From Parvibaculum sp. (GTDB lineage Bacteria > Pseudomonadota > Alphaproteobacteria > Parvibaculales > Parvibaculaceae): a stretch of 64,000 nt of DNA. Numbering within the stretch: the first letter of the stretch is position 1; each line of letters opens with the position of its first letter. Shown one piece after another: positions 9,817 through 63,996 of this stretch. The stretch covers positions 62,001 to 126,000 of the forward strand of contig JAUSMV010000012.1 of assembly GCA_030645235.1 (NCBI GenBank), read 5' to 3'. A program made the position numbers and the translations under genes. The notes below the pieces were generated by a model. That model was not told the DNA's origin. It saw only the letters and a program-made list of their open reading frames with translations, and did not search any database.

Positions 9817-9826
9817 CCTTGCGAGA

Positions 9827-11227: not shown

Positions 11228-11239
11228 GGAGAGCCTTTG

Positions 11240-13276: not shown

Positions 13277-13306
13277 CGGGGGGGCGAACTTTCACGGGAG
13301 GGGTGC

Positions 13307-13324: not shown

Positions 13325-13430
13325 ACGCTCACTTTTTATCGCCTGAAATGACTATTCCCTCAAGATATTCATGCTGTTGGGTCCAATTTGAATTCGATGA
13401 TAAGGTGACTTAATCGCAAAGTGATATTGG

Positions 13431-15038: not shown

Positions 15039-15067
15039 GCTGGGCCTGAGAGGCCGCTCCTGTTTTT
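15037..15067 (+). terminator. Rho-independent terminator after the flippase
   Basis: GAGC (15037-15040) pairs with GCTC (15056-15059), enclosing GGCCT-GAG-AGGCC (15043-15055); CTG and five T follow. It overlaps the flippase stop codon and would separate the flippase from the broken gene downstream. Confidence 0.65.
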
Positions 15068-16844: not shown

Positions 16845-16910
16845 AACTCTGTCCGCATATTTTCTTCCCGTTATACTCTTTGTAGATATTTTGGATGAGC
16901 GCCTTCTTGG

Positions 16911-16961
16911 CCGGAACTATTCCGGACGGGAGCATTTCTCGCTTGCGTCTCTTTGGAGACG
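16911..16961 (+). other. Two perfect hairpins between the sulfotransferase and the glycosyltransferase operon
   Basis: CCGGAA-CTA-TTCCGG (16911-16925) and CGTCTC-TTTG-GAGACG (16946-16961) are perfect six-base-pair stems. Neither is followed by a T-tract, so they are not standard terminators. They lie 50 to 100 bases before the first glycosyltransferase start and could be mRNA structures or operators. Confidence 0.35.
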
Positions 16962-17012
16962 TTAAAGTGTAGAGTTTATCAAATCGCCTGAGGATTGAAT
17001 GAGGTACCTCCT

Positions 17013-19195: not shown

Positions 19196-20267
19196 AGGTC
19201 TGCCCCGCAATGCCGGTATGACGGCACTCGCTGCGCGCCATGCGGAGATTGCTGCGTTGATGCCGCGTGATCAGAAGATTATTTTTCTGGATTATCCGCT
19301 CGGCAAAAATGTCGGCGATCTTCTTATCATGCTCGGCACGCTGTATTTTTTCAAGACGCACGGGCTCTCTATCAGGCTTTCGCGTAATTTGCGCAATACA
19401 GAGCCAAGAGGTCGCCTGCCAATCGGCGAGGGCGATACAATTGTTTTGCAGGGCGGAGGAAATTTCGGCGATCTCTATCCGCATATCCAGAATTATCGTG
19501 AGAGGATTATTGACGAATATCCCGATCATCGCATTCTGATTTTCCCGCAAACTATCTTTTATCAAAACAAAGAATTATTTGCGCGGGCTGCCGAAAGAAT
19601 TAACCGTCATCCTGATCTCACTTTTTTTGTACGTGACACTGTGAGCGCGGAAATGGCACGACCTTATTTTGGTGAACGCGTTCGGCTGGTGCCGGATATG
19701 GCGCATCAGCTCTGGCCCGCTTTGCGTGAAGCAACCTTGTCGCCGGATAATGAGGGTGACCGCATTCCTCCATTGTTCTTCATGCGCGATGATGAAGAGG
19801 CCGGAAAATCATACCCGGCAGTTGATGTATATCGCGATGCGTTTGTCGATTGGGCGGATGTTAATGCCAATTCGCTGCGTATCTGGAAGCGCCTTTTTGA
19901 AGGGTTGGCTGTCGCTGAAAACAGGTTCGGCTTTTCTCTTCATTCCGAGCGGTTGTATTTTGACATTATTCGCCGCGAGGTGGAGCGCGTTGCGCGGCGT
20001 ATGGGCAGGCATCCGGTCTGGGTAACGAGCAGGCTCCATGGATTCATCATGGGTTTGCTGCTTGGTAAACCGGTCTTTGCCGTCGACAACAGCTACGGAA
20101 AATTGTCATCTTATATTTCGACTTGGCAGAATGAGATCTCGCCCGTGGTTCTGATAGCGTCTGATGCAGAGGCGATCAGCGCAATGAAATTTGTAAACGG
20201 TGCGCGAACGACGCGGAAGGCCCTTTGGACTTCATATAGCGATGCACATCAAATGGTCGGAGGGTAA
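19182..20267 (+). CDS. Polysaccharide pyruvyl transferase family protein
   Basis: The product (361 aa) belongs to the PS_pyruv_trans family, which transfers pyruvate from phosphoenolpyruvate to a sugar as a ketal, adding a negative charge. Recognisable blocks are FLDYPLGKNVGDLLIMLG, DTIVLQGGGNFGDLYP, ILIFPQTIFY, FFVRD, and near the end VTSRLHGFIMGLLLGKP with the family's conserved Arg and His. There is no signal peptide, so the reaction is cytoplasmic on the lipid-linked repeat. ATG 19182 overlaps the previous gene by 14 bases; an internal ATG at 19218 is a weaker alternative. Four bases separate it from the next gene. Confidence 0.9.
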   Translation: MDKGEGLPRNAGMTALAARHAEIAALMPRDQKIIFLDYPLGKNVGDLLIMLGTLYFFKTHGLSIRLSRNLRNTEPRGRLPIGEGDTIVLQGGGNFGDLYPHIQNYRERIIDEYPDHRILIFPQTIFYQNKELFARAAERINRHPDLTFFVRDTVSAEMARPYFGERVRLVPDMAHQLWPALREATLSPDNEGDRIPPLFFMRDDEEAGKSYPAVDVYRDAFVDWADVNANSLRIWKRLFEGLAVAENRFGFSLHSERLYFDIIRREVERVARRMGRHPVWVTSRLHGFIMGLLLGKPVFAVDNSYGKLSSYISTWQNEISPVVLIASDAEAISAMKFVNGARTTRKALWTSYSDAHQMVGG

Positions 20268-20271
20268 GGCC

Positions 20272-21225
20272 ATGGGCGTTGCTGTAATTCTCACCTGTCA
20301 CAATGAAGCGGAGTATATTGAACAAGCGGTGCGCAGCGTTGCCGCGCAGACTTTGATTGATCAAATCGACTCCGTGATTGTGGTCAATGACGGTTCAAGT
20401 GACAATTCTGCTGAAATACTCGACGGGCTTGTTGCAGAGATCCCGCAGCTTGTGGTGATCACGGAAAGCGGAATCGGGCTTCCGGCTGCGCGCAACCGGG
20501 CCATTCAGGCGAGCGCCGGCGAGTTTATTGCTTTCCTTGACGGTGATGATTATTGGGTGCCGGAGAAACTTGAAAAGCAGATGCCTGCATTCAAGGATCG
20601 GCGTGTCGGCCTTGTCTATTGTGACTATGTGGATTTTACACGAGCCGATGCATCTGATGCACAGGATATATATGTCCGACCCTATGATGTCGATATGGAG
20701 CGGACGCTTGAGACCTATTTCGTTCATGATGCGCCGATCGTTCCCTCATCCTGCATTATCCGACGTGAAACGTTCGAAGATGTCGGATTGTTTGATCCGG
20801 AAATGCGTCTCGGAGAAGACACGGAAATGTTTCTGCGCGTTGCTGAGAAATGGCGTTTTCAGTACGTGCCCGGAGCAATGATCTTTAAACGAAGGCACGG
20901 GCGCAATCTAACGCGACGCCTTGATGCATTGTTGCCTGTTTCCGAAGTTGTGACAGATCGGTTTGTCCGTCGTAACCCTCAACTTGAAGCATTTGCGTGT
21001 AAAAGAAGGGCTCGCCGACTGGCGCGTGCCGGCAATGATTGCGCGCGGCAGGGTGAATTCAGAATTGGTGTCGGTTATATTCTGCGTGCCATCGGAAATG
21101 ATCCGGTATTTTGGCGCAGTTATGCTTATCTGATGCTCGCTCTTGCGCCGCAGCGCATAACTAGTTCTCTTCGTGATGCAATAAGATTTGTCTTTTACAA
21201 AGTGCATTCGCGAAGATCGTTGTGA
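20272..21225 (+). CDS. Glycosyltransferase, GT2 family
   Basis: The product (317 aa) is an inverting GT-A fold glycosyltransferase. The N-terminus AVILTCHNEAEYIEQAVRSV is classical, followed by NDGSSDNS (39-46) for nucleotide binding and the metal-binding DGDDYW (90-95). A later MRLGEDTEMFLR block fits the catalytic base region. No membrane segments are seen. ATG 20272 is chosen for the GGAGGG about 7 bases upstream; the in-frame sequence before it is the shadow of the pyruvyltransferase gene. Among the five operon and minus-strand glycosyltransferases here it is the only inverting type. Confidence 0.9.
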   Translation: MGVAVILTCHNEAEYIEQAVRSVAAQTLIDQIDSVIVVNDGSSDNSAEILDGLVAEIPQLVVITESGIGLPAARNRAIQASAGEFIAFLDGDDYWVPEKLEKQMPAFKDRRVGLVYCDYVDFTRADASDAQDIYVRPYDVDMERTLETYFVHDAPIVPSSCIIRRETFEDVGLFDPEMRLGEDTEMFLRVAEKWRFQYVPGAMIFKRRHGRNLTRRLDALLPVSEVVTDRFVRRNPQLEAFACKRRARRLARAGNDCARQGEFRIGVGYILRAIGNDPVFWRSYAYLMLALAPQRITSSLRDAIRFVFYKVHSRRSL

Positions 21226-21239
21226 GGGGTAGCCCGGAT

Positions 21240-22382
21240 ATGTATCGCAGCGTTGCGATCATCACGCATGAATTCGCACCATTTGCAGGTGGCATTGCCA
21301 CTTATGTTAAAGAGGTTGCCACTGTGCTTGTGGAACGCGGTGTGCCTGTGGAAATCATCGCGCCCTATTATGAGGGGGGTGAGGAGAACAGCCAGGTGTT
21401 TCCGGTTGTCCGGGCGCTAACGCATCATCGTTTGTCGCCTTCTGCCGTTGTCAAAGCTCTCCGTGCTATTCTGTGCCATCCGAAAGACTGTTTTTTGCAT
21501 GCCGCCGATATTCGCGCTGCCTTGTTGCTGCTTCTTGTCCGGCTTCTGAGCGGGCGACGCTATGGCGTTATGATTCACGGCAGTGAAGTCAGCAAGCTGA
21601 CAGGCAGAGGTATCGGATCATTGGTCGCGCGGATTGCCTACCAAAAAGCCGACGTTATATTCGCAAACTCGCAATCAACCCTTTCTATTTTTGAACAAAA
21701 TGTCGGCAAGCAGGTGCCGGGCCGCGTGAGCTATCTCGGTATCGAAGCGCGCTGGTTCGACCGGCACCTTGACGCTTTTGAGAGAAGTGATCTTGAGCAG
21801 TTGGCCGCGTCCTTCCCATATTTTTGTACTGTTGCCCGCATAGAGCGACGCAAGGGTCAGGATCAGGTCATTCGCGCGATGGCTGCGTGGTCGTGTGAAG
21901 AGCGAGCGAGAGTTGCTTATGTCGTGGCAGGGCCGGTGATTGATGAAGCTTACAGGGCGGAGCTGGCCATGCTCGCTGAAGAGCTTGGTGTGAAGACAAT
22001 TTTCACCGGATTGCTGTCGGAGAATGATCTGAAAACTCTCTACCGGAAATCGGTATGTCATGTTCTTCCGGCCCTTCCGCTTGAAGGAAAGATGGAAGGG
22101 TTTGGCTTTGTGTCGCTGGAAGCCGGGGCGCAGGATGCTCCTTCCGTTGCAAACCGAACCGGAGGTATTCCGGAAGTGGTTTTGGATCAGATATCCGGCA
22201 TATTGGTCGATGTCGGTGATATTGTAGGACTTTCAATTGCGCTGAAGGATATGCTGACGGATCGTGTGCGTCGGAATGAACTTGGCAAGGCTGCAGGTCT
22301 TCAGGCCGTCCGGTTCACTTGGAAAGCCTGTGTTGAAAAAACTTATAAGGATATTGTGTCGTTAGGTGAGTTGTCGCATTAA
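21240..22382 (+). CDS. Glycosyltransferase, GT4 family
   Basis: The product (380 aa) is a GT-B fold retaining glycosyltransferase. N-terminal loop ITHEFAPFAGGIATYVKEV; donor domain with VARIERRKGQDQVIRAM and the E-x7-E motif in MEGFGFVSLEAG, followed by ANRTGGIPEVV. ATG 21240 has GAGGGG 9 bases upstream; an alternative GTG at 21222 overlaps the previous stop as GTGA and would add six residues. It continues the coupled operon. Donor unknown. Confidence 0.88.
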   Translation: MYRSVAIITHEFAPFAGGIATYVKEVATVLVERGVPVEIIAPYYEGGEENSQVFPVVRALTHHRLSPSAVVKALRAILCHPKDCFLHAADIRAALLLLLVRLLSGRRYGVMIHGSEVSKLTGRGIGSLVARIAYQKADVIFANSQSTLSIFEQNVGKQVPGRVSYLGIEARWFDRHLDAFERSDLEQLAASFPYFCTVARIERRKGQDQVIRAMAAWSCEERARVAYVVAGPVIDEAYRAELAMLAEELGVKTIFTGLLSENDLKTLYRKSVCHVLPALPLEGKMEGFGFVSLEAGAQDAPSVANRTGGIPEVVLDQISGILVDVGDIVGLSIALKDMLTDRVRRNELGKAAGLQAVRFTWKACVEKTYKDIVSLGELSH

Positions 22383-22398
22383 ACCGGAGAATTTCGGA

Positions 22399-23160
22399 AT
22401 GGAATACGCGCCCAGCAAGAAATGGCATAGCCGGATGGAATATCTAGTGCCAACCTACATTGTACCGAGAATTGAGTCCAACTGGGATATTGTCAGCATT
22501 GGTTGTGGCGGCGGAGATGATGTGGAGCTGCTGCGGGACCATGGTCTGCAGGCCTTTGGTTTTGACCCGGTCAGGCATAAATTTTTTGATCAACGCAAGG
22601 AAAGTGTCAGGCCATTTCTGAGGCAAGGCACAGCTCAGGATATGCCATTCGGAGATAAGCGCTTTGACTATGGATATTCTCTGGAAGTCATTGAGCATGT
22701 AGGTTGCGTGGACTTCAAAACCACATTGGGCCCCGATGCTGAGGCGGAGCGCGTTGATTATCTGAAGGCGTGCTTGCTGATGATCAAGCCCGGAGGCAAG
22801 CTGTTGGTGACAACGTCGAACCGGTTATGCCTGATCGATGTTGGACATCCGCACAAGTATCATGCGTTTGGACGCTGGTTGAGCCGTGTGTTTAAACCGC
22901 GATTTGGTATTTCCCTGCCATGGCACCGTGAAAATTTTTTGCCGTCTGTCAATGATATTCGGCGTTATGCTGAAAAGGCAATCGGCGAAGGTCGTGTTGA
23001 GGTGCGCAGCGTTTCGATCAAGGATTATCCGCAGATAGCGGGTGCCAGCTCATGGAAGGGCGCGCTTGTGCGCCTTATGATTTCCGTTCTAGACAATAAA
23101 GTATTGCGTACGAGTCCTTTTTGCCCATTGTTGAATGTCGAGATTGTGCGCATTGCATGA
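22399..23160 (+). CDS. Class I SAM-dependent methyltransferase
   Basis: The product (253 aa) has the SAM-binding motif I as IVSIGCGGGDDVELL, an acidic post-I residue in GFDP, and the Methyltransf_11-type YGYSLEVIEHVG. It would methylate a sugar hydroxyl or another small acceptor in the cytoplasm. ATG 22399 with GGAG about 9 bases upstream is preferred to the in-frame GTG 22366 that overlaps the previous gene. Its place after four glycosyltransferases and a pyruvyltransferase suggests O-methylation of the repeat unit. Confidence 0.83.
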   Translation: MEYAPSKKWHSRMEYLVPTYIVPRIESNWDIVSIGCGGGDDVELLRDHGLQAFGFDPVRHKFFDQRKESVRPFLRQGTAQDMPFGDKRFDYGYSLEVIEHVGCVDFKTTLGPDAEAERVDYLKACLLMIKPGGKLLVTTSNRLCLIDVGHPHKYHAFGRWLSRVFKPRFGISLPWHRENFLPSVNDIRRYAEKAIGEGRVEVRSVSIKDYPQIAGASSWKGALVRLMISVLDNKVLRTSPFCPLLNVEIVRIA

Positions 23161-23184
23161 ATGAGTGTCAGTTCTGAGGTGAGT

Positions 23185-24099
23185 ATGAAAAATTCTGGTT
23201 TTTCGATCCTCATTTTGGTGTCGTCACTTCTGATTGGCGGATGTGCGTCTTCTGTTGCGCAACCTCTGAGCGCAGATGCGGCTTCTCCCCGTGTGGTGGC
23301 AGACGGAAACGTTCAGAAGAAACAGGATTCTCCGCCAGAGCGGAAGGCAACCAGAACCGAAGAAAAGAAGAAAAAGAAAACTCCTCCTCCGCCACTTGAT
23401 CTGAGCGCCTATCGTCTGACGTTCAATGATGAATTTGACAAGATGAGCATTGTGCCGGACAAGGGAGACGGCACCTGGTTTGCACCGGTGCATGTGACCT
23501 TCGGAGCAGCTCTCCTTGCCCCCCCGTCGCCAAGCGGACCTTTTTTTGTCAAAGACGGAAAGTTGACCATCCGAGCCAGCGTTCAGGATGGAAAATGGAC
23601 ATCAGGACTGATGCAAACCGTGGATTCAACGGGCCGAGGATTTTCACAAGCATATGGCTATTTCGAAATGCGCGCGAAGTTGCCGAAAGGGCGTGCCACT
23701 TGGCCGGCCTTCTGGCTGTTGACGCAGCGAACCTATGTCGACACAACGGCGACGCGCGGCGAGATCGACATTCTGGAGGCCTATGGTTCACAACATGGTG
23801 TTATTCATTTCGCGCTGCATATTCGTCCGCGCGGCGACAGGCGTTGGAATTTTTCCAAGCAATTTAAGCAGCCGACAATGATGGAGGGGTTTCACCGTTA
23901 CGGAGCTTCAATAGATTCGGTTTGGATAAAATTCTATTTCGACAGTGAGGAAATTTATCGCGTTCCGACTTTTGAAGTGTTCAAGGGGCCGATGTATATG
24001 CTTGTTGACCTGGCGATGGTCGACAAGGATATGGCACGGGCGGAAAGTCCGTCAGATTTGATCGTTGATTATGTGCGGGCCTATGAGAAAATTCAGTAG
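23185..24099 (+). CDS. GH16-family glycoside hydrolase lipoprotein
   Basis: The product (304 aa) is an exported endo-glycosidase of family GH16. A lipoprotein signal ends LLIGGC with the Cys lipidated, then a Lys/Pro-rich linker (KKKKKTPPPP) leads to a jelly-roll catalytic domain. The catalytic signature EIDILE is intact at 193-198 (nucleophile E193, D195, acid/base E198). ATG 23185 has GAGGTGAG just upstream; the in-frame ATG 23161 would put eight residues before the signal peptide. As the last gene of the operon it may trim or release the polymer, as ExoK-type enzymes do for succinoglycan. Substrate is unknown. Confidence 0.9.
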   Translation: MKNSGFSILILVSSLLIGGCASSVAQPLSADAASPRVVADGNVQKKQDSPPERKATRTEEKKKKKTPPPPLDLSAYRLTFNDEFDKMSIVPDKGDGTWFAPVHVTFGAALLAPPSPSGPFFVKDGKLTIRASVQDGKWTSGLMQTVDSTGRGFSQAYGYFEMRAKLPKGRATWPAFWLLTQRTYVDTTATRGEIDILEAYGSQHGVIHFALHIRPRGDRRWNFSKQFKQPTMMEGFHRYGASIDSVWIKFYFDSEEIYRVPTFEVFKGPMYMLVDLAMVDKDMARAESPSDLIVDYVRAYEKIQ

Positions 24100-24114
24100 G
24101 GCATAGATTGCGGA

Positions 24115-25062
24115 TCACTGAGCGCCAAGATACTGGCGCGCAATTGTGTTGGTATCCGCGGCACCTTCAGATTTTTTCCCCAGAAAGTAGACGCCGTTTG
24201 CGCCATCAATCTGATATTTTCGGGAGATCAGCCGGTCAAATAATCCGAAGATCATAAATGGCGCACTCAGGATATCCGCAAGCCGTCTGTGGCGCGTGAG
24301 GCCGCGGAAAAAATATTTAGCTGCCCAAAAGAGGGACAGACCCGGTCCGCCCATTGCGCCGCGTTCAATAGCGGCGAAATTGCGCCATAGCCAGCGATGC
24401 CCCAGTTCCGTAAAGCGCGTGAAATCGTAAGCACCTTCATGGATCTGCTGCATGAACGGGGTTTCCGCATAGACAAGACCGTCGGTCTTCAGGACCCGGA
24501 ATATTTCGCTCACAACGACAGACGGCTCCAATACGTGTTCCAGAACAGCCTGAATGCATACGGCATCTATTGAGTGATCGGGGAGTGGTATTTTGTGTGC
24601 GTCGGCTACGAAATGCGTCAGGGGAGAGGGATAGACGTCGAAGGAAATCTGATCAATGTCAGGATCATCATAGAGAATGTCTGTTCCGATTCCTCTTGTT
24701 GCGCTTCCGATCATGAGAAGTAGCGGACGTGAGGTCTGTTTTGATTTTATCAAATTACGGAATTTTCTGAAATTTTCATTGCAGATAGCAGACGTGCCGA
24801 CGAGGTAACTTTTGATGATGCGCGGCAGACTTTGGCGATGTCCGATGATTGAGTAATCGGTATGTGCAAGGTTGAACCAATCGCGGGAAATGATGCTGTC
24901 AGCGAAATCTATCAGGACAGGTTGACTCAGAACGACGGGATAGGAGAGTTCGTCGGAGGTGACCGAGCGCAGTTCTCCGTTTATCCGATCGAGTTTTACG
25001 GGTGTCTCCGGTTGCCCGGGACGCCTAAGTAAACTTTCGATATGTCGGGAATCAATCAGCAT
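24115..25062 (-). CDS. SAM-dependent methyltransferase
   Basis: The product (315 aa) carries a Methyltransf_11-like core in its middle. A motif I-like LLMIGSATRGIGTDILYDD precedes FDVYPSPLTHFVADAHKIPL, then SIDAVCIQAVLEHVLEPSVV and RVLKTDGLVYAETP. Motif I departs from GxGxG, so SAM binding is less certain than for its neighbour at 22399. About 120 N-terminal residues have no domain I recognise. It is the last gene of the minus-strand operon beginning with ugd and faces the GH16 gene across 15 bases. Confidence 0.75.
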   Translation of the reverse strand: MLIDSRHIESLLRRPGQPETPVKLDRINGELRSVTSDELSYPVVLSQPVLIDFADSIISRDWFNLAHTDYSIIGHRQSLPRIIKSYLVGTSAICNENFRKFRNLIKSKQTSRPLLLMIGSATRGIGTDILYDDPDIDQISFDVYPSPLTHFVADAHKIPLPDHSIDAVCIQAVLEHVLEPSVVVSEIFRVLKTDGLVYAETPFMQQIHEGAYDFTRFTELGHRWLWRNFAAIERGAMGGPGLSLFWAAKYFFRGLTRHRRLADILSAPFMIFGLFDRLISRKYQIDGANGVYFLGKKSEGAADTNTIARQYLGAQ

Positions 25063-25102
25063 CTACAGAGTCACCTGCTTCAATCGACGAAGATGTGTCG
25101 GA

Positions 25103-26377
25103 TCAGATTAAGTCCCCGGGAAGTGCATCAGGTCCGTTGAGTGCAATTTCGGAGGGGTTGGTCGTGGCCCGTCTTTTTAATTTTCGTCCATGCTGTGACA
25201 ATGCGTAGTAAAGAGCTTCCGGCAGCAGGGAGATGAAGATCAGCACCACAAATGAATGTGTTCCTGATGCTTCGAACGCTGTGTAGAAAAAACACGGCAA
25301 GAACGGGATAACAGGTAAAATTTTGATCTGGTCTTCAGTGATAATTCCGGCATGAGCAAACAGACGAAGAACCTTGATTGTTCTCAACAGGCTGAAGATC
25401 CAGATTGGCAGATATAGCATGAAGCCCACAATACCGTTCTCGGCCAGGATGCGAAGAAATTCGCCGTGAATACCGATAAGCATATAATCGGGTAGATAGG
25501 CAAAGCGATCACGTACGAGGTCGGTATAGGCGTTAGTTCCGACGCCCAGGATCGGATTGGAGGCAATCATTTCGCCTGAAACATGTAGTGTGAAAATACG
25601 TTGCGCGTTACTGAGTGAAACAGGCGCAACACCCTGCGCAATGCCTTCGTAGGATTGGTATGTCTCGCCAAATTCCAGAAATGTGCGGAGTTGTCGCTCA
25701 AGATACGGATCTGTCACGGTGGCGGCGAGGAAGGCGACTAGGGCATAGCCTGCGGCAATGATCGGTAACGCGCGCACAATTCGTCCACCGCTGAAAAGCG
25801 TGATTGTCAGCAAGCCGTAGATGACAAGGGCCTTGCGCTCGCCCGACAGAAAAATGATGACGGCGAGAATGGCCCACATGAAGAAATGGCGACGGCGCTC
25901 CGACGGATCGGCAAACAGGACCAGCAGGCCAAGTACAAGGGGAAGGAATGTAAAGGTGGCCTTCGGATCATTGAGGCGTTTCCAGCCGGTCCATTGTCCG
26001 TTGTTGATATGCCAGATGATGCTGAAGGCTGTAATAATGCATAAGCCAATCAGAATGAGACGAGCAATTTTTGTATAGTCGATGTCTTCGAGTTTGGATG
26101 CCGTGGAATAGGCAAAGACAGCGACGAGGGCGATTTGCAGGCCTTCGCGCAAGCCGTTGTCGGTGGAGACTGTAAAGGCCGATGTTACATGCCAGAGGAA
26201 GTATGGTACGAGGATCAGGAATCCCAGTTGCAAACGTTTGAGCAGAGCGCCTTGGCGTAGGACAATCAGGAAAATCACAATAGCGATGGCATCAAACGGT
26301 CGAAGTTGTACCAAGCCTAAATTCAATTTGAAGCTGACAAACATGCTGATGATGGCTAGCGAGATTAGATATTCCAT
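25103..26377 (-). CDS. O-antigen ligase / Wzy-like polymerase family membrane protein
   Basis: The product (424 aa) is a polytopic inner-membrane protein with about ten hydrophobic helices and a periplasmic loop holding ILGVGTNAYTDLVRDRF and IGIHGEFLRILAENGIVG, the G-x-G and H..E..EnG pattern of O-antigen ligases and Wzy. It lies 9 bases downstream of a glycosyltransferase gene in the ugd operon. Along with the protein at 9827-11227 it is one of two possible polymerases; one may polymerise and the other ligate, or each may serve a different polymer. Confidence 0.83.
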   Translation of the reverse strand: MEYLISLAIISMFVSFKLNLGLVQLRPFDAIAIVIFLIVLRQGALLKRLQLGFLILVPYFLWHVTSAFTVSTDNGLREGLQIALVAVFAYSTASKLEDIDYTKIARLILIGLCIITAFSIIWHINNGQWTGWKRLNDPKATFTFLPLVLGLLVLFADPSERRRHFFMWAILAVIIFLSGERKALVIYGLLTITLFSGGRIVRALPIIAAGYALVAFLAATVTDPYLERQLRTFLEFGETYQSYEGIAQGVAPVSLSNAQRIFTLHVSGEMIASNPILGVGTNAYTDLVRDRFAYLPDYMLIGIHGEFLRILAENGIVGFMLYLPIWIFSLLRTIKVLRLFAHAGIITEDQIKILPVIPFLPCFFYTAFEASGTHSFVVLIFISLLPEALYYALSQHGRKLKRRATTNPSEIALNGPDALPGDLI

Positions 26378-26386
26378 AGAATCAAA

Positions 26387-27556
26387 TTACATCGTCTGGT
26401 TCTTGGGCGCCATTGCCGAAGGTGAGCTGAGAAGCTTGTGGTAAACCTGTTCGATTTGATGCGCCATTTCACGGGCGCTCCAGGCGGAAAGGTTCATGTC
26501 GCCGCTGGCTTTCGCCATGGCACTGCGTAAATCAGGATTGGTGATCAGCGTTTCGAGAAAGTCGCTGAACTCGGCGGAGCTATTCGCGATATAACCGTTT
26601 TCATCATGCCGAACGATGCGCTCAAGTCCCGGAAGGTTCATTGCCACAATAGGTCTGGCACCGATTGCATACTGAACAACTGAGCGTGGCAGACCTTCGC
26701 GTTCGGAAAAGAAGACGCAAATATCGCAAGCTGCAATCACGGCTTCAGGATCGTCGCGAAAACCAAGCAAGTTGATGCGCCCGGCAAGCCCTAGGTTGTT
26801 GATCAAGGACTGAAGAGATTCTTTCTCGGGGCCGTCTCCCGCAAAAACGAGTCTCACCATACTGTGTCGGGCAAGCAGCGGAGCGATAGCCTCGATCAGT
26901 TCACGATGCCGTTTTCTCTTTTCAAGTACGGCAATATAGCCGATGGTGAGAACCGGCTTGCCCTCGTTATTGTGTTTCGCAAGCTGCAGGTCCTCAGCCG
27001 GACTTGCGCTGCGGAACTGGTCAATGTCCATACCGCTGGCAATTACGTTGTGCTGATCAGGGGCTCCGAGCCTGTGGTTTAGACATAGGTCGCGCATACC
27101 GTCGCTGACATCAATAAAATGATCTGTGAACGGCGTAACTATTTTTTCAAGCGCAAGATAGGTCAGAAATTTCGCTTTGTTCTCGCTGGTGAAAGGCAGG
27201 ATATGGACGCCATGTACAATGATGCTTTGGGGAGTGGCGAGAGTGGCTAGGCGGCCGATGAAGCCTGCCTTGCTTGTATGTGTATGCACTATGTCGGGTT
27301 TTAATTTGGCGAGGTGCCGCGATATCCTTGCGAGCGCAATGATATCTTTGACGGGAGCGACAGGGCGAACGAGATGTGGCACGCGTAGCGCGCTGACGCG
27401 TTTGTCTAGGCGGTTCAGCATGCGATCGGTGAACTCATCGCCGTAGATGAGCGTGACCTGATGACCTGCTGCTGCCTGATAGTTGCAGGTCTCAAGCGTG
27501 TTTTCGTCAGCTCCGCCGTTGATAAATCGTGTGATGATGTGAGCAATCTTTAACAT
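26387..27556 (-). CDS. Glycosyltransferase, GT4 family
   Basis: The product (389 aa) is a GT-B fold enzyme resembling CapM/PglA-like transferases. It has FINGGADENTLETCNY near the N-terminus and PDIVHTHTSKAGFIGRL around residues 90-105. The C-terminal FFSEREGLPRSVVQYAIGARP region shows Glu at the first position of the E-x7-E motif but Gln at the second, an unusual substitution that could affect donor ribose binding. It follows ugd by 58 bases on the same strand. Donor unknown; a uronic acid is plausible from the neighbour. Confidence 0.87.
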   Translation of the reverse strand: MLKIAHIITRFINGGADENTLETCNYQAAAGHQVTLIYGDEFTDRMLNRLDKRVSALRVPHLVRPVAPVKDIIALARISRHLAKLKPDIVHTHTSKAGFIGRLATLATPQSIIVHGVHILPFTSENKAKFLTYLALEKIVTPFTDHFIDVSDGMRDLCLNHRLGAPDQHNVIASGMDIDQFRSASPAEDLQLAKHNNEGKPVLTIGYIAVLEKRKRHRELIEAIAPLLARHSMVRLVFAGDGPEKESLQSLINNLGLAGRINLLGFRDDPEAVIAACDICVFFSEREGLPRSVVQYAIGARPIVAMNLPGLERIVRHDENGYIANSSAEFSDFLETLITNPDLRSAMAKASGDMNLSAWSAREMAHQIEQVYHKLLSSPSAMAPKNQTM

Positions 27557-27614
27557 GCGAATACTTGGTCCTTGTCTGAACGTTCATCATGCAAGGGTGA
27601 CAAGATCAACATGG

Positions 27615-57058: not shown

Positions 57059-58123
57059 GTGGGCGTTCGGGGCTATTTAGCCGTTTCATCGGTCAGAGTT
57101 GGGGCGCTGGCGCTTTTGGCGCTGGCAGCGGTTCTGTGCGCCTCATTACCCGTTCATGCCGCACCCATGTCGCTGACACCGCCCAAGGTCGCGAAAGCTC
57201 AGGGCACGCTTGTGCCCGCGCCTGTTGTTGCCCCCACCATGCCGGGCGATGAGCCACCGGTTCCCGCATCAGTGGCAGAACAGGCAACGGCCGCGCCGGT
57301 GCTCACCAAGCCCGTGAAACCAAAGTCGCGTTATAACGTGGTCGTGTTCGGGGATTCGCTTGGCGATGGTGTCTGGGCCGGGCTTTATCATGCGTTGCGC
57401 AAAGACAAGCGCTTCAACGTCATCCGCAAATCAAAAGTTGCCACAGGTTTTGTCCGGCGTGATTATTACGACTGGAACGAAGCCGTGCGCGAGGTCGCGG
57501 CGGACACGGTGATCGATATTGCCATTGTCATCATGGGCACGAATGACCGCCAGACCATTGTTGAAGATGGCGGGCGCTATGCGCTCTTCACGCCGGAATG
57601 GCGCAAGGTCTATGAAGCGCGCGTCGATGATTTTACGGCGACGCTGAAAGCCACGGGCGCACGGATTTATTGGGTCGGATTGCCGGTCATGCGCGGTCAG
57701 ACTTTTGAAAATGACATGGTTTCTTTCTCCGATATTTTTGAACGTCGTGCCGAGGCCAATGCGGTTTATTTTTTACCGACGCATGATCTTCTTGCTGATG
57801 AAGATGGCAACTATGTCGCCTATCGTGAGGATGCTGCAGGGCGTAAGAGATTGATGCGGGCCGAAGACGGCATTCATTTCACGATGGATGGCTATAGCCA
57901 GCTCGTAAAGCCGGTGGCCCATGCGATTGTGCGTGATGTGGATCGCGGGCTCATTGTAGCGGACGCGTCGGCTCTTGCTGTTTCGGCGGCAGCCAATGAG
58001 GCAGATACCGGGAGCACGAAAAAATCTGCCGCTGAAATCGGCCTCAAGACGCAAATCTACGACATGGTCGAAAGCCGTCCGGGTCGCAGCGATGATTGGC
58101 GTTGGTCCGGTGCCGCGCGCTGA
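57059..58123 (+). CDS. Exported SGNH/GDSL hydrolase-like protein (DUF459 type)
   Basis: The product (354 aa) has a Sec signal peptide (cleavage after PVHA near residue 34), a Pro/Ala-rich linker to about residue 90, and an SGNH domain. Block I is VVVFGDSLGDGVWAG with nucleophile S100. Block III is IVIMGTNDRQT. Block V is AEDGIHFTMDGY with the Asp and His. Such proteins hydrolyse or transfer acyl groups on cell-envelope glycans, often together with an MBOAT protein. The start is GTG. The next gene is a second SGNH protein 22 bases on. Confidence 0.88.
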   Translation: MGVRGYLAVSSVRVGALALLALAAVLCASLPVHAAPMSLTPPKVAKAQGTLVPAPVVAPTMPGDEPPVPASVAEQATAAPVLTKPVKPKSRYNVVVFGDSLGDGVWAGLYHALRKDKRFNVIRKSKVATGFVRRDYYDWNEAVREVAADTVIDIAIVIMGTNDRQTIVEDGGRYALFTPEWRKVYEARVDDFTATLKATGARIYWVGLPVMRGQTFENDMVSFSDIFERRAEANAVYFLPTHDLLADEDGNYVAYREDAAGRKRLMRAEDGIHFTMDGYSQLVKPVAHAIVRDVDRGLIVADASALAVSAAANEADTGSTKKSAAEIGLKTQIYDMVESRPGRSDDWRWSGAAR

Positions 58124-58145
58124 TCCCTCACAAGGGCAATCTCTG

Positions 58146-59375
58146 ATGGGCCGGTTGCGGCCAGCGCTTCTTGCCTCTGCCGCTCTTATGGTGCTTGCTG
58201 TTGCCGCTTGTGCCGCAACGCCTTGTTCGCCGTCATTGAGCGCCCCAACGTCGCCCGCCGGCCTCAATAAATTTTATGCGGCCCTTGATGGTTTGAAATC
58301 AGGTACGGCCACGCACCCCGTCACCGTTTTGCATTTGGGCGACAGTCATATCGCGCTTGATCACATGACGGGTGTGCTCCGGCAAAAATGGGTCACGCTT
58401 TTTGGTGATGCCGGTCGCGGCCTTCCCGCCGGTGTGCCTTACCCCTATTTTTCGCCACGCGGTTTCAAAGTCTCGATGACATCCGACTGGACAATTGTTT
58501 CAAGCCTCAAGGCAGGCGTCGCCGGTCCCTTCGGCATTGCCGGTTTTCGCATTGAGGCGTCGAATGCAACGGCGCGCATCTCGCTTGTCAGCGATACGCC
58601 CGTTGATGGTGTTGAGATTGAAGCCTATGGCGGACCGCAATCAGGCTCGCTGTCGCTGACCCTTGGCAATGCTGCGCCGCTCAGGCTCTCAACGCGGCGC
58701 GCGACACCGGGCGTCGTGTTCCTGCGGCTTCCGGCGGCACAGGTGCGCGATGTTGTGCTGATGCCGCAAGGCGATGGCCCTGTCACTCTGCTCGGCTGGT
58801 CGATGTTGAAATCCGGTGCCGGCCTTCGCTATGACAGTTATGGCATTTCAGGTGCGACGCTTGATGTGGTGAGCCATTGGGACGAGGCGATTGTGGATGA
58901 GGAAATCGCACGCTTAGCGCCCGACCTCATTTTGCTTGGCTATGGCACCAATGAAGGCTTTAACGACAATGCCGATGTGGCGGCCTATACGCGGCGCTAT
59001 GAGGCGCTGGCGACGCGGCTTGAGCGATTGGCGCCGCATGCCTCCATCGTCACGCTGGGTGCGGTGGATGGCGCACGCCGCGCGCGACCTGCTGATCGTC
59101 AGACTTGCGGTGACGGTTTTGCCGTGCCGCCGAAGCTCGCCGTTTTGCGTGAGGCGCAGCGCGGCGTCATGCGCGCGCGGGGTCACGGCTTTGTTGATCT
59201 GAGTGCGGCCATGGGCGGCCCGTGCGGCATTTCTCAATGGGTGCAGGCCGATCCGCCGCTGGCCTGGCCTGACCATGTGCATTTGCGAAAGAGCGGTGCG
59301 GAAACGGTCGGCAGATTTCTTTGGCATCAATTGATGCAGCCGTTTGAAACAGCCGTTTGTTTGTCTTCACACTGA
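58146..59375 (+). CDS. SGNH/GDSL-type lipoprotein
   Basis: The product (409 aa) is an exported SGNH-fold protein. A lipoprotein signal ends VAAC (C22). Block I is VLHLGDSHIALDH with nucleophile S67, using the GDSH form common in glycan O-acyltransfer partners; block III is LLGYGTNEGFN; block V is WPDHVHLRKSGAE with Asp and His. The middle (about 120-240) is a carbohydrate-binding-like beta region. ATG 58146 is preferred because the signal peptide begins there. It probably shares an mRNA with the SGNH gene upstream. The paired exported SGNH proteins suggest work on one surface acceptor with the MBOAT at 62545. Confidence 0.87.
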   Translation: MGRLRPALLASAALMVLAVAACAATPCSPSLSAPTSPAGLNKFYAALDGLKSGTATHPVTVLHLGDSHIALDHMTGVLRQKWVTLFGDAGRGLPAGVPYPYFSPRGFKVSMTSDWTIVSSLKAGVAGPFGIAGFRIEASNATARISLVSDTPVDGVEIEAYGGPQSGSLSLTLGNAAPLRLSTRRATPGVVFLRLPAAQVRDVVLMPQGDGPVTLLGWSMLKSGAGLRYDSYGISGATLDVVSHWDEAIVDEEIARLAPDLILLGYGTNEGFNDNADVAAYTRRYEALATRLERLAPHASIVTLGAVDGARRARPADRQTCGDGFAVPPKLAVLREAQRGVMRARGHGFVDLSAAMGGPCGISQWVQADPPLAWPDHVHLRKSGAETVGRFLWHQLMQPFETAVCLSSH

Positions 59376-59376
59376 G

Positions 59377-59404
59377 TTGCGTCCTCTGGTTTAATGGGTA
59401 GTAT
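59377..59404 (+). promoter_or_regulatory. Candidate promoter of the autotransporter gene
   Basis: TTGCGT (59377-59382) and TAGTAT (59399-59404) are 16 bases apart and match four of six bases each with the sigma-70 consensus. Transcription from it would start within a few bases of the base of the structured leader at 59407-59469. It starts two bases after the preceding stop codon. Confidence 0.35.
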
Positions 59405-59406
59405 CT

Positions 59407-59469
59407 GATCAATTAAGACTTCGCTTGGGGGCATACCTGCTGAAGCAGGTGTGTTGGCGAAAATTGATC
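59407..59469 (+). ncRNA. Three-tier structured mRNA leader abutting the autotransporter ribosome-binding site
   Basis: Three nested perfect stems can be drawn. The outer is GATCAATT (59407-59414) with AATTGATC (59462-59469). The middle is TTCGC (59420-59424) with GCGAA (59457-59461). The inner is ACCTGC (59435-59440) with GCAGGT (59445-59450), closed by a TGAA tetraloop and extendable by four more pairs (GCAT with GTGT). The left arm has a 5-base bulge, and a 6-by-2 internal loop holds TTGGGG. The structure ends at the base before the ribosome-binding site GGGGAGAG. No T-tract follows, so it is not a terminator. It looks like a cis-acting RNA element; its ligand or trigger is unknown. Confidence 0.6.
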
Positions 59470-59482
59470 GGGGAGAGATCAC

Positions 59483-62341
59483 GTGACTTTTGTATCGTCC
59501 AACGGACGGCGCAATTTGCGCCGCAGCCTTCTTGCTTCGTCTGTTTTGAGCACGGTTCTTTTGGCTCATACAGGGGCCGCCTTCGCCGGTGATCTTTCGG
59601 TATCGACGGCATTGACTGATCCGATCTCGACCAGCGTTGGCGACGGCGGTGGAGCTGGCGATATCGACATTTTGACGTCAGGCTCTGTGACGCTTGATCC
59701 GACAGATGTCGGAGCGGCGGTCACGCTCGACAGCCCGACGGAATCAATCACCAATAGTGGTTCGATCACCGCCGGTCAGGGCACGATTGCGGAGAACCTC
59801 GGACAGAACGGCATTCGGGTTACGACGGCGACGACCGGCGGGGTCAGTAATATCGGTACGATCAAGACCGGTACGACGCAGACAACGGATTCGAACGGCG
59901 CTATCGTGATTACAGGTGTTGGTGCCGATGCGGCGGTTCTTATTGAAGCCGATCTCGGTACGGGTTTTAACAATACCGGCACCATCTCGTCGATTGCTTC
60001 GTCAACCAATCCTTATGCCGTTCTCATTCAAAGCGTCGGCGCTCCCATTACATTCGGCGTGATCGACGCGGGTGACGCGGCGCTGAATTACGGCATTCAT
60101 AATAAAGGCACGATTTACGGGATCGGCTATATCAACGGTAACTCGACAACAGCAATGGGCTTTGTCGGTTCGATCGCCAATCCGATTTCCATTCCTGGTA
60201 TCAATAATGAAACCGGCGGCACCATTCAGGCGACGTCGGCCGATGATGATGCAACGGCGATTGATATTGGCGCCTTCACCTCAATCACTGGTCCGGGCAT
60301 TGTGAATGGTGGTACCATCACGGCCAGCATTGCCTCTCCGAATAACGCAGGCGTTGCGACAGCCATTCATATCGGTGCAAACGGTTCGGTGACCGAGATC
60401 GCCAATAGCGGTACCATTCAAGGTGCAAGCTCGGGGGCGGCCGGTGGCGATGCCTTTGCGATTGACGTTGATGCGCTCGGCTCTCTGACCACCATTACCA
60501 ACAATGCCAGTTCGAGCATTTTTGCGACGGCGTCAAATGCTGGTGATGATGCGACAGCGATCCGCGATCAGTCCGGCACACTTGCAATGATTGCCAATGC
60601 CGGTTCAATTTCGGGAGCGACAACGGCGACCGGTACAGCTGTTGCTATTGATCTGAGCGCGGGTGCGGGCAACACGATTATCAACAATACCGGTAATATC
60701 GTCGGTCAGATCAATTGGGGCGCCGGCAACTATCAGTTGAACGCGTCGGACGGCGTTATCATCTCCGATTTCTCAATCAATGCAGGTGCTGCCGTCATTA
60801 ATCTGACCGGTGACGCGAGTTTGACCGCAGGCAGCACGCTGCTTGGCGGCGGTACGCTCGATCTGAATGCGGCCACAGGCACAACGCTCAGTGCGAATGC
60901 CAATAATTTCAACGTGACCAACATAACGTTTGATAGCGGTTCGACTTATGCCGTGAGCTATGACACGGCAACGGCAACGCCTTCAGGCCATATTGCGGCT
61001 GATACAGCGACATTGCATGACGGCGCGATCATCAACGTGACGCTGACCTCCTATCTCGGTGCAGCGACGCCGACCATCACGGTTGTCGAGACCAATACGG
61101 CGCTCAATTTTGATACGCCTGCCGATCCTTCGGGTCTTGTCATTGGCGGCATTGGTGCGGGCTACAATGCCGTGCTTGCAACCGCCAATGCCAATGCGGA
61201 CCTCACCGTAACACTGTCGCGCAAGACTGCGGCTCAGCTGGGTCTCGTTGGCAATGCGGCGGTGATTTATGATGCGTCGGTTGATGCGCTTGAAGCGGAT
61301 ACAACATTCGGTGCAGCCGTCGGTAACCTGGGGACAGTTGCAGGCGTTGTCAGCCTTTATAATCAACTTCTGCCTGATCTGAGCAGTGCGCGCGAACAGC
61401 AGGCCATGCGGATGCAGGATGTGGCGTCTGGCTTCGTTAATGACCGTCTGAACCTCATGCGCACAGCAGAACAAGGCGCGGGTGACGGCGGTGGACGGTA
61501 TAATAAACGCTACCGTCGCGCCGGCCTGTGGCTGCAGGAAGCTGCATCGTTTGAAAAAGGCGATGGCGATGTCGGTACGCAGGCCTATGACGGCGAGCTT
61601 ATTGCGCTCGCGCTCGGCTATGATGCGCGTGACGATGATGGCGACGTCTGGGGCGGTTCGCTGACCTATGCGTCGATGTCATATGACGCGGGCCTCAGCG
61701 AAGAGGACAATGTTGCCAGCACGACCATGGCGCAAGTCTATCATTCGCTTAATCGTGGTGCCTTCTTCTGGGATACGATGGGGTCTGTGGCCTGGAATTC
61801 CTATGAATCCAATCGCACTGTGACGGCGGGTGCCGTGGCGCGGACGGCCAGCGCTGACTGGACCGGTTATCAGGGTGGTCTGTCGAGCCAGGTCGGCGTT
61901 GCCGGGAGGCTTGGTTTTCTCACGTTCCGTCCGTCAGCAGGTCTTTCCTATACCTATCTGTCGCAAGATGGTTATAGCGAAGAAGGCGGTGGTACGGGTG
62001 TGAACCTCAAAGTTGACTCCAGCACTTTCTCTTCTTTGCGGGGCAATGTTGAATTGCGTGTGAGCGGCATCTTCTCTAAGGAACCGCAGATTGTGCCTTA
62101 CATACGCGGCGGCATCAGCCAGGAGCTGATGGACACCAAGACGGAGACATCGGGTAGCTTTGTCTCCACCGGCACGACTTTCACGCTGCAAAACACCGAG
62201 CTTGATAAAAGCGCGCCGTTTGTCGGTGCGGGTGTTTCGGTTGTCGGCGGCTATTCACGCCTGTCATTTGAATATACCGGTCAGCTTGGAAGTAAGTTCA
62301 CATCGCATCAGGGTGTTGCAACTGTGTCCTTCATGTTCTGA
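59483..62341 (+). CDS. Autotransporter with beta-helix passenger and C-terminal barrel
   Basis: The product (952 aa) is a type Va secreted surface protein. After a Sec signal peptide (cleavage after AAFA near residue 35) comes a long passenger (to about 650) of short repeats of the form N-x-G-T/S-I, such as ITNSGSITAG and IANSGTIQGAS, typical of a right-handed beta-helix. Residues from about 690 form the translocator barrel, with YRRAGLWLQEAASF, WGGSLTYASMSYDAGL and a final GVATVSFMF ending in the aromatic residue needed for outer-membrane insertion. The start is GTG with GGGGAGAG upstream, directly after a structured leader. No protease or adhesion motif stands out in the passenger. Confidence 0.92.
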   Translation: MTFVSSNGRRNLRRSLLASSVLSTVLLAHTGAAFAGDLSVSTALTDPISTSVGDGGGAGDIDILTSGSVTLDPTDVGAAVTLDSPTESITNSGSITAGQGTIAENLGQNGIRVTTATTGGVSNIGTIKTGTTQTTDSNGAIVITGVGADAAVLIEADLGTGFNNTGTISSIASSTNPYAVLIQSVGAPITFGVIDAGDAALNYGIHNKGTIYGIGYINGNSTTAMGFVGSIANPISIPGINNETGGTIQATSADDDATAIDIGAFTSITGPGIVNGGTITASIASPNNAGVATAIHIGANGSVTEIANSGTIQGASSGAAGGDAFAIDVDALGSLTTITNNASSSIFATASNAGDDATAIRDQSGTLAMIANAGSISGATTATGTAVAIDLSAGAGNTIINNTGNIVGQINWGAGNYQLNASDGVIISDFSINAGAAVINLTGDASLTAGSTLLGGGTLDLNAATGTTLSANANNFNVTNITFDSGSTYAVSYDTATATPSGHIAADTATLHDGAIINVTLTSYLGAATPTITVVETNTALNFDTPADPSGLVIGGIGAGYNAVLATANANADLTVTLSRKTAAQLGLVGNAAVIYDASVDALEADTTFGAAVGNLGTVAGVVSLYNQLLPDLSSAREQQAMRMQDVASGFVNDRLNLMRTAEQGAGDGGGRYNKRYRRAGLWLQEAASFEKGDGDVGTQAYDGELIALALGYDARDDDGDVWGGSLTYASMSYDAGLSEEDNVASTTMAQVYHSLNRGAFFWDTMGSVAWNSYESNRTVTAGAVARTASADWTGYQGGLSSQVGVAGRLGFLTFRPSAGLSYTYLSQDGYSEEGGGTGVNLKVDSSTFSSLRGNVELRVSGIFSKEPQIVPYIRGGISQELMDTKTETSGSFVSTGTTFTLQNTELDKSAPFVGAGVSVVGGYSRLSFEYTGQLGSKFTSHQGVATVSFMF

Positions 62342-62544: not shown

Positions 62545-63996
62545 ATGCTTTTCCCGACACTTACGTTCGGCATTTTCTTTCTGATCGTTTTCACGGTCAG
62601 TTGGTCCATGCACTGGACGCCGGAGCCCCGCAAATGGTTCCTCGTCGGGGCAAGCTATTTTTTCTATGCCTGGTGGGACTGGCGCTTCACCACTTTGTTG
62701 TTCGGGACAACGCTCATCAATTATCTCGGCGGGCTGGCGCTTGATCGGGCCAAGCGTGATGCGACGCGCAAGTGGATTGTCGGGTTTGTTGTCGTTGTCG
62801 ATCTCGGTGTGCTCGCCTTCTTTAAATATTATGACTTCTTCCTGACATCTCTTGATGGTGTGATGCGCACACTTGGTCTTGCGCGCGATCTGCCTTTTAT
62901 GGAAGTGATCCTGCCTATCGGCATTTCCTTCTTCACGTTTCAGGGCATCTCTTATGTCGTTGACGTTTATCGCGGGCATGTCCGCGCGGAACGTTCGCTG
63001 CTTGATGTGATGCTGTTCAAGTCGTTCTTCCCCCAACTTGTTGCCGGTCCCATCGTGCGCGCCGCTGATTTTATTCCGCAGCTTCAAGCGCCGGTGCAGC
63101 TTACGCGTGATCATGTGTCAGTGGGTGTTGTGCTCATTCTCACGGGTCTTGCCAAGAAGATGGTGATTGCCAATTATCTCGCAACCGAGATTGTTGATCC
63201 TGTGTTCTTTGATCCCTCCGTTGTGAGTGCGCTTGATCTGCTCATCGGCATCTATGCCTATGCGATCCAGATTTATTGCGACTTTTCGGGCTATAGTGAC
63301 ATTGCTATTGGCGTGGCGGCGCTGCTTGGCTATCGCTTCCTTGCCAATTTCGATCAACCCTACCGCGCGGCGAGCCTGCAGGATTTCTGGCGGCGCTGGC
63401 ACATTTCGCTGTCCACTTGGCTCCGCGACTATCTCTACATTCCCCTGGGCGGTAACAGGGGCGGCGAGGCGCAACGCTATCGCAATCTCTTCATCACCAT
63501 GTTCCTCGGTGGACTTTGGCACGGCGCTGCATGGACCTTTATCATCTGGGGTTCATTTCACGGTGCGATGCTCGGCCTTGAGCAATGGCTCAAGCGCAAG
63601 CTCGAAAGTGTCGCGCCTGTTTCTGCTGATGCGCCGGGTCTTCTCACACGTTTGGGGAATGGTGCGCAGCATGTCGTGGGTGTTGTCTCGACATTTCATA
63701 TTGTCTGCTTTGCCTGGATATTTTTCCGCGCCGATAGTTTTTCGACCGCTATGGATTATCTTATCGGCTTCGGGGATTGGTCGTCGGCCAATGCTTATGT
63801 CACGCCGTTCGTTGTCGGTCTTGTCGCTGTGGGTCTTCTCTTTCAGTTCACCCCGCGCCAGATGGGTCGTGAGCTTGCGATAAATCTGCGCGAGTTGCCC
63901 GCACCCGTGCTCGGTTTGCTGTTGGGCTTGGGCATTTTTGTCATCTGGTCTGTGGCCCCTGAAGGGGTTGCGCCGTTCATTTACTTCCAGTTCTGA
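62545..63996 (+). CDS. MBOAT-family O-acyltransferase (AlgI/DltB-like)
   Basis: The product (483 aa) is a polytopic inner-membrane acyltransferase that passes acyl groups from the cytoplasm to periplasmic partners. It opens with LFPTLTFGIFFLIVFTVSW and has YFFYAWWDWRF, ILPIGISFFTFQGISYVVDV, and FFPQLVAGPIVRAADFIPQL. YCDFSGYSDIAIGVAALLGY and RRWHISLSTWLRDYLYIPLG follow, and the catalytic His lies in FLGGLWHGAAWTFIIWG. Length and motifs match AlgI. The stop lies 4 bases from the window edge, so a following partner gene (AlgJ/AlgX-like) may lie outside. The two exported SGNH proteins encoded upstream are the likely acyl acceptors or transferases. Confidence 0.93.
   Translation: MLFPTLTFGIFFLIVFTVSWSMHWTPEPRKWFLVGASYFFYAWWDWRFTTLLFGTTLINYLGGLALDRAKRDATRKWIVGFVVVVDLGVLAFFKYYDFFLTSLDGVMRTLGLARDLPFMEVILPIGISFFTFQGISYVVDVYRGHVRAERSLLDVMLFKSFFPQLVAGPIVRAADFIPQLQAPVQLTRDHVSVGVVLILTGLAKKMVIANYLATEIVDPVFFDPSVVSALDLLIGIYAYAIQIYCDFSGYSDIAIGVAALLGYRFLANFDQPYRAASLQDFWRRWHISLSTWLRDYLYIPLGGNRGGEAQRYRNLFITMFLGGLWHGAAWTFIIWGSFHGAMLGLEQWLKRKLESVAPVSADAPGLLTRLGNGAQHVVGVVSTFHIVCFAWIFFRADSFSTAMDYLIGFGDWSSANAYVTPFVVGLVAVGLLFQFTPRQMGRELAINLRELPAPVLGLLLGLGIFVIWSVAPEGVAPFIYFQF

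What the first reader, a model, noticed from the sequence alone, without database searches (positions are those of the whole stretch)
59407..59469. Compound RNA hairpin leader ending exactly at the autotransporter ribosome-binding site
Seen: three nested perfect stems (8, 5 and 6-10 bp) with a bulge and an internal loop, spanning 63 bases, directly followed by GGGGAGAG and a GTG start, and preceded by a plausible -10/-35 pair that would start transcription near the base of the outer stem. No T-tract follows, so it is not an intrinsic terminator. Inference: a cis-acting element (thermosensor, riboswitch, small-RNA target or ribosome standby site) controlling the autotransporter. I do not recognise a known family.
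Basis: partly seen in the sequence, partly recalled or inferred. Interest (0 to 1): 0.62.

Follow-up and report, generated by a model that had tools for sequence, protein, structure and literature searches.

The report
Shape-conserved leader hairpin before autotransporter gene
Just upstream of a surface-protein gene in a Parvibaculum bacterium the messenger RNA can fold into a strong hairpin, and in the closest relative found the letters have changed in matched pairs so that the same shape survives, which points to a real but ordinary-looking RNA control element.

Summary
The hairpin at 59407-59469 is real: -28.5 kcal/mol, z -6.1, 4th of 179 leaders sampled from its genome. It precedes a 952-aa autotransporter in Parvibaculum and matches no Rfam family or terminator. 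Of seven family orthologues with a readable leader only the closest, G003 (62% protein identity), keeps it. There a structure-blind ungapped alignment puts two of three stems in register: 11 of 11 pairs kept, 6 by changes on both sides, none broken; simulated neutral drift never gave as good a joint fold (0 of 5000, four runs). Hairpin letters are 18 of 46 identical, near the gene's four-fold sites (164 of 376): letters drift, pairing stays. The outer 8-bp stem is not kept letter for letter. Calculated melting argues against a simple thermosensor, poorly conserved loops against a riboswitch. Most likely it is a fixed leader structure that protects the mRNA and perhaps limits access to the ribosome-binding site, as a leader stem-loop protects vacA mRNA (PMC4843948). 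Mechanism is inferred, from one species pair. New member of a known kind, modest interest.

The parts
59407..59469 (+). compound leader hairpin as first reported
   Evidence: MFE -28.5 kcal/mol, z -6.1; one match in own genome with a 116-base query
59420..59424 (+). 5' arm of middle stem, pairs with 59457-59461
   Evidence: 5 of 5 pairs kept in G003, 3 with two-sided changes
59457..59461 (+). 3' arm of middle stem
59435..59440 (+). 5' arm of apical stem, pairs with 59445-59450
   Evidence: 6 of 6 pairs kept in G003, 3 with two-sided changes
59445..59450 (+). 3' arm of apical stem
59425..59434 (+). G-rich 5' side of the internal loop (UUGGGGGCAU here, UGGGGCGGAA in G003); partly paired differently in each species
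59404..59414 (+). 5' arm of outer stem with basal extension 59404-59406; can pair with 59462-59472 and mask the first three G of the ribosome-binding site
   Evidence: fold from 59402; UCUG/CGGG helix possible in both species, alignment-dependent
59462..59469 (+). 3' arm of outer stem
   Evidence: left open in the joint fold with G003
59470..59477 (+). GGGGAGAG ribosome-binding site, inside a block of high identity with G003 (18 of 22 alignment columns)
59483..62341 (+). autotransporter gene, 952 aa, GTG start
   Evidence: PF03797 at 682-928, E 4.8e-38
59366..59395 (+). possible promoter TTCACA-N18-TTTAAT (by eye, inference)
   Evidence: sequence; the scan found none at its threshold

Best explanation
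A cis-acting leader hairpin of the autotransporter mRNA, kept for its shape and not its letters in two Parvibaculum species. Shown: the fold is strong and the two inner stems are maintained by compensatory change. [quoted passage not shown] No ligand or partner is needed.
For: Strength: z -6.1, 4th of 179 leaders. Selection on pairing: 11 of 11 core pairs kept in G003, 6 two-sided, 0 broken; slid versions 27-50% of cells paired; 4 of 500 letter shuffles reach the observed values. Random-site drift gives 11 of 11 in 4 of 200,000 and a joint fold of -22.4 in 0 of 5000 in each of four runs. Local control: among 17 leaders compared between the window and the syntenic G003 contig this one has the lowest joint energy (-21.6) and the most two-sided changes (9 of 21 pairs). 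Shape not letters: hairpin columns 18 of 46 identical, unpaired ones 8 of 24, against 164 of 376 four-fold sites of the gene. RNase E/G is encoded (two PF10150 matches). Precedent: a leader stem-loop raises the half-life of vacA mRNA (PMC4843948, abstract and section 5 read).
Against: Only one species pair carries the covariation; the model finds no convincing third member in 40 family genomes. The G003 hairpin alone is only moderately strong (z -2.8, 5 of 500 shuffles as good). The 11 core pairs were picked with both sequences in view; of the 17 pairs of the window's own fold G003 keeps 13 (P 0.0023 under random-site drift; 1276 of 20,000 if the differing sites are held fixed). The transcript's 5' end is unknown; with a 107-nt gap after the SGNH gene and no terminator found the two may be co-transcribed, and then the hairpin is not 5'-terminal. 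[quoted passage not shown] subtilis (PMC7509114 section 12).
Confidence: 0.45

Rival explanations
1. A translational gate: the basal helix (59404-59406 with 59470-59472, and its counterpart in G003) masks the ribosome-binding site until a small RNA, a protein or ribosome traffic from the upstream gene opens it.
For: Folded from 59400, 59402 or 59404 the GGAG core is 0.35-0.37 unpaired, from 59411 0.80; in G003 0.14 when the RNA starts just before CUCUG and 0.70 or more once that is cut off. UCUG/CGGG is possible in both species.
Against: With starts further upstream (59360, 59390, 59396) the core is 0.50-0.70 unpaired, so the masking holds only for some starts. The basal helix depends on where a 6-nt gap is put, four of its seven pairs never vary and two are U.G. 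No opener is known.
Confidence: 0.27
2. An intercistronic hairpin of an SGNH-autotransporter operon that marks a processing site or stabilises the upstream or downstream segment after cleavage.
For: A same-strand SGNH frame ends 107 nt upstream here; in G003 a same-strand long frame ends 143 nt upstream. No terminator and no promoter above threshold between them here.
Against: The other six orthologues also follow a same-strand long frame (its identity was not checked) but lack this hairpin. Co-transcription not shown.
Confidence: 0.15
3. A ligand-, protein- or small-RNA-binding leader (riboswitch or similar) with the G-rich internal loop as the site.
For: GGG of the loop and one further G are identical in both species.
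Against: Unpaired columns are only 8 of 24 identical; no Rfam match above cut-off; no convincing member outside two species in the genomes searched.
Confidence: 0.08
4. Chance: a strong hairpin without function.
For: Other strong hairpins exist in the window (10 places with z below -4.5), and six of eight autotransporter leaders lack this one.
Against: Compensatory changes in exact register.
Confidence: 0.05

Closest known systems
vacA 5'-UTR stem-loop of Helicobacter pylori
   Same: Stem-loop in the leader of an autotransporter mRNA (that VacA is an autotransporter is recalled); substitutions often keep pairing; disrupting it lowered mRNA level and half-life (PMC4843948, abstract and section 5).
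   Different: There it sits at +4 to +30, 80 nt upstream of the ribosome-binding site; here it abuts the site, is larger and has internal loops, and its 5' end is unmapped. No sequence relation was tested.
ompA/papA-type 5' stem-loops (E. coli)
   Same: Leader hairpins that protect mRNA, ompA for an outer-membrane protein (passages and titles in the reference list of PMC3997798; passages and section 12 of PMC7509114).
   Different: Position at the 5' end and effect on decay are established there, not here.
RNA thermometers (ROSE, FourU; recalled)
   Same: Leader hairpin near a ribosome-binding site.
   Different: The hairpin holds at most the first three G's of the site, and the calculated stem stays closed to 50 C.
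Structured ribosome standby sites
   Same: Structured leader next to the ribosome-binding site (PMC3936740, PMC7708055: start of the abstracts in the listing only).
   Different: No single-stranded landing region identified here; not tested.

Membership tests
mRNA-stabilising 5' stem-loop (vacA/ompA kind) | stable hairpin upstream of the start codon | tested here: met
   MFE -28.5, z -6.1
mRNA-stabilising 5' stem-loop (vacA/ompA kind) | pairing, not sequence, is conserved | tested here: met
   6 of 11 pairs two-sided, 0 broken; identity 18 of 46; two species only
mRNA-stabilising 5' stem-loop (vacA/ompA kind) | hairpin at or within a few nt of the 5' end | not testable with these tools
   no 5'-end data; no promoter above threshold
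mRNA-stabilising 5' stem-loop (vacA/ompA kind) | loss of the hairpin shortens half-life | not testable with these tools
   experiment needed
RNA thermometer | ribosome-binding site held in a helix that melts in the growth range | tested here: not met
   by calculation, RNA from 59405: outer arm 0.02 unpaired at 50 C; site 0.27 to 0.38 unpaired from 15 to 50 C
Known riboswitch or leader family | match to a curated covariance model | tested here: not met
   no Rfam match at gathering score in the window; matches listed at loose E-values are far below cut-off
Intrinsic terminator or attenuator | T-tract after the stem | tested here: not met
   0 found in 59200-59600
Ribosome standby site | single-stranded landing region next to the structure | not tested
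   transcript start unknown

The most novel reading that the evidence does not exclude
A new lineage-specific cis-regulatory RNA: a leader hairpin whose basal helix, possible in both Parvibaculum species, gates the ribosome-binding site of a fast-evolving autotransporter, while sister species have put unrelated leader hairpins at the same spot.
Probability: 0.25. Interest if true: 0.42.

Novelty: new member of a known kind. Interest (0 to 1): 0.28.

Why it matters
It is a small clear example of an mRNA leader in which sequence has drifted to about the level of four-fold sites while pairing is kept, in a genus for which three searches of open-licence papers found no description of such leaders. 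If the protective role holds, it would extend the vacA/ompA theme (structured leaders on surface-protein mRNAs) to Parvibaculum. It would not change a general view of RNA regulation.

Tried and rejected
Rfam search of the window, of the site and of the G003 locus: nothing above cut-off. Thermosensor: rejected on calculated melting. Terminator: rejected. Repeat or mobile hairpin: one match in the genome. Plasmid search: no match. Viral contigs and the first genome-contig scan with the protein: no relatives; the second, with an alignment, gave seven loci, all seven with contig lengths equal to genomes already found.

Covariance model from two sequences: in 40 family genomes the two founders score about 85 bits, a third match is 17 bits, E 0.48. 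In 385 class genomes (stricter filters; G003 not among the rows shown) there is one extra match, G384, 28 bits, E 3.2e-4 for one genome, so about 0.1 expected over 385. It keeps 10 of the 11 pairs and the TCGGGGAGAGA string, but lies inside an open frame (1179-1532 of L061) upstream of a terminase-like frame (label from my reading, no call), so I take it as chance; this was not followed further. Weak matches in neighbouring loci (best E 0.044 in L030) were not followed.

Controls that speak less clearly: 4 of 500 letter shuffles reach the observed covariation. Sliding G003 against the window without gaps by up to 12 columns either way, the joint fold is -20.8 in register, but -16.3 at +7; the other 23 offsets give -0.6 to -8.3. 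The six other orthologues reach 8 or 9 of the 11 pairs somewhere along about 260 positions each. Pairwise joint folds of the eight leaders (28 pairs): column-shuffle z values are unreliable where the alignment is gappy (G010/G018 gives z -33 at only -8.2) and G000/G003 ranks seventh by z there, so I rely on the ungapped tests; by raw energy G000/G003 is lowest (-19.0), then G015/G006 (-14.8). The same caution holds, where some of the 90-nt stretches also run into the upstream gene.

Script faults: one null failed by a length error and was rerun; others (no output; missing file; wrong strand for three loci) were redone. Start codons of G006 and G018 were set differently and.

Full report
Setting. 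The window lies in a 3.83-Mb genome of 86 contigs. Its relatives are named Parvibaculum, Parvibaculaceae, Hyphomicrobiales or Alphaproteobacteria in genome contigs; one, L036, has the contig length of G003:C110 and is titled Parvibaculum sp.. The gene at 59483-62341 encodes a 952-aa autotransporter (PF03797). Upstream on the same strand are two SGNH/GDSL-type frames (57059-58123 and 57975-59375), downstream an MBOAT gene (62545-63996).

Observation. The 63-nt hairpin folds at -28.5 kcal/mol, z -6.1, 0 of 200 shuffles as good. It is followed by GGGGAGAG and a GTG start. It is not a terminator and no promoter passes the scan's threshold. A grid scan of both strands of the window shows 154 of 31,970 segments at least as stable, and ten non-overlapping places with z below -4.5, this one sixth. 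Of the nine others six lie inside called genes; the top one is intergenic and ends in a T-run. In 179 leaders of at least 63 nt from 294 crudely called genes in 364 kb of the same genome it ranks fourth by z (-5.77; mean -1.64, sd 1.50). So it is unusual but not unique.

Relatives. The protein has matches at E 0.001 or better in 18 of 40 family genomes; nine of 40 pass 1e-20, the window's own included. Eight of these nine (the window and seven others) have a readable leader; the ninth, G034, runs off its contig. Leaders of G004, G015, G006, G010, G030 and G018 do not hold this hairpin; their best z in the three stretches tested is -3.3 (G010). G003 does: its own hairpin is weaker (-24.8, z -2.8, 5 of 500 shuffles as good), but a structure-blind alignment of the two leaders is ungapped over 68 columns up to the start codon. 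In that register the middle stem (5 pairs) and the apical stem (6 pairs) are complete in both species; 5 pairs are unchanged, 6 changed on both sides, none changed on one side, none broken.

Is that chance? Sliding the partner by 1 to 3 columns leaves 27-50% of cells paired; 4 of 500 shuffles of the 3' letters reach the observed values. Dinucleotide shuffles of G003 reach 11 of 11 pairs in 1 of 20,000. Drift from the window sequence by the same number of changes at random sites reaches it in 4 of 200,000; holding the differing sites fixed and dealing out the letters, 162 of 20,000. These counts use pairs picked with both sequences in view. For the 17 pairs of the window's fold alone G003 has 13; random-site drift reaches 13 with P 0.0023, the fixed-site null in 1276 of 20,000. 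A test without picked pairs, the joint fold energy, gives -22.4 against means of -4.2 to -5.0: 0 of 5000 in each of four drift runs, and 0 of 2000 in each of four runs with column shuffles or shuffled G003. One ungapped offset, +7, also folds jointly well (-16.3 against -20.8 in register; the other 23 offsets -0.6 to -8.3).

Local control. Of 47 genes called in the window 37 match the syntenic G003 contig; 17 with a match from the first residue, a start codon and at least 60% identity were compared over 90 nt upstream. This leader has the lowest joint energy (-21.6; next -17.8) and the most two-sided changes (9; next 7).

What is conserved. The hairpin columns are 18 of 46 identical, the block with the ribosome-binding site and start 18 of 22. 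Four-fold sites of the gene are 164 of 376 identical. So the letters of the hairpin drift about as if free, the pairing does not. Unpaired columns are 8 of 24 identical. This speaks for a role of shape and against a ligand pocket, with the caution that two sequences are few.

Outer stem. The window's 8-bp outer stem is not kept letter for letter: in ungapped register G003 has an AT-rich stretch there, and the joint fold of 79 columns leaves it open. A longer alignment with a 6-nt gap offers a basal helix, UCUG with CGGG plus three pairs, two of them changed on both sides. If it forms, the first G's of the ribosome-binding site are masked: the GGAG core is 0.35-0.37 unpaired when the RNA starts at 59400, 59402 or 59404, but 0.50-0.70 from 59360, 59390 or 59396, and 0.80 from 59411; in G003 it is 0.14 just upstream of CUCUG, 0.18 and 0.30 for two longer starts, and 0.70-0.73 for the five later starts. 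The transcript start therefore decides the matter and is unknown. By eye TTCACA-N18-TTTAAT at 59366-59395 would start near 59402.

Mechanism. Shown: strength, position, compensatory change. Inferred: function. A thermosensor is not supported, since the outer arm stays paired to 50 C by calculation. The best fit is a fixed leader structure that protects the message; RNase E/G is encoded. The nearest precedent is the vacA leader stem-loop, whose disruption cut mRNA level two- to sixfold and shortened half-life (PMC4843948, abstract; position from section 5). Against it: the hairpin here abuts the ribosome-binding site, and too close a stem-loop lowered delta-ermC mRNA stability (PMC7509114, section 12). 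A translational gate is the main rival.

Distribution. A covariance model from the two sequences finds no convincing third member in 40 family genomes or 385 class genomes; the class search used stricter filters. Its one extra match (G384, E 3.2e-4 for one genome, 10 of 11 pairs) lies inside an open frame and is about what 385 genomes give by chance. In G006 and G015 a different short hairpin stands directly before, or one base before, a GGGGG ribosome-binding site (sequences), so leader hairpins at this gene may turn over.

Literature. Searches for Parvibaculum with autotransporter, with riboswitch, and with untranslated region plus mRNA gave 1, 0 and 0 papers (the one is a Brucella genome paper, seen in the listing only). 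Only open-licence papers are held. A Pelagibacter RNA survey lists two intergenic regions beside autotransporters; the passages seen name no motif for them (PMC2704228).

Checking. On re-reading the calls I corrected the account of the G384 match (one non-standard pair, not two), added the longer starts, the +7 offset, the shuffles and the G003 hairpin's own z; none of these changes the odds given.

Noticed in passing
L029 and L030, leaders of the orthologues in G015 and G006: A 6-bp hairpin GTGRGG/CCTCAC stands directly before (G015) or one base before (G006) a GGGGG ribosome-binding site; the one stem difference is A-U to G-U. An unrelated leader hairpin at the same gene.
   Followed up: partly
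window 59465-59481: By eye, UGAUC-GGGGAGA-GAUCA could form a 5-bp hairpin with the ribosome-binding site in its loop, exclusive with the outer stem; in G003 only about 4 bp (GUGG/CCAC) with a longer loop are possible.
   Followed up: no
window 57975-62341: The SGNH frame and the autotransporter are 63 and 61% identical to their G003 matches, while 16 of the 24 genes with a match between 27 and 64 kb are 74-94% identical.
   Followed up: no
window 9800-27600: Of 15 called genes here 8 have no match on the G003 contig and 7 match at only 33-55% identity: a variable region.
   Followed up: no
window 6673-6735: Strong hairpin ending in a run of six T between two same-strand genes, a likely intrinsic terminator.
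   Followed up: no
L044, about 16464, - strand: Leader hairpin of -35.3 kcal/mol, z -6.2, before a gene whose start reads MRRVVVTGIGMVSPLGG (FabF-like, label recalled).
   Followed up: no
L061 1382-1449: A stretch in an unrelated class-level genome that keeps 10 of 11 model pairs and the TCGGGGAGAGA string, inside an open frame upstream of a terminase-like frame; taken as chance.
   Followed up: partly
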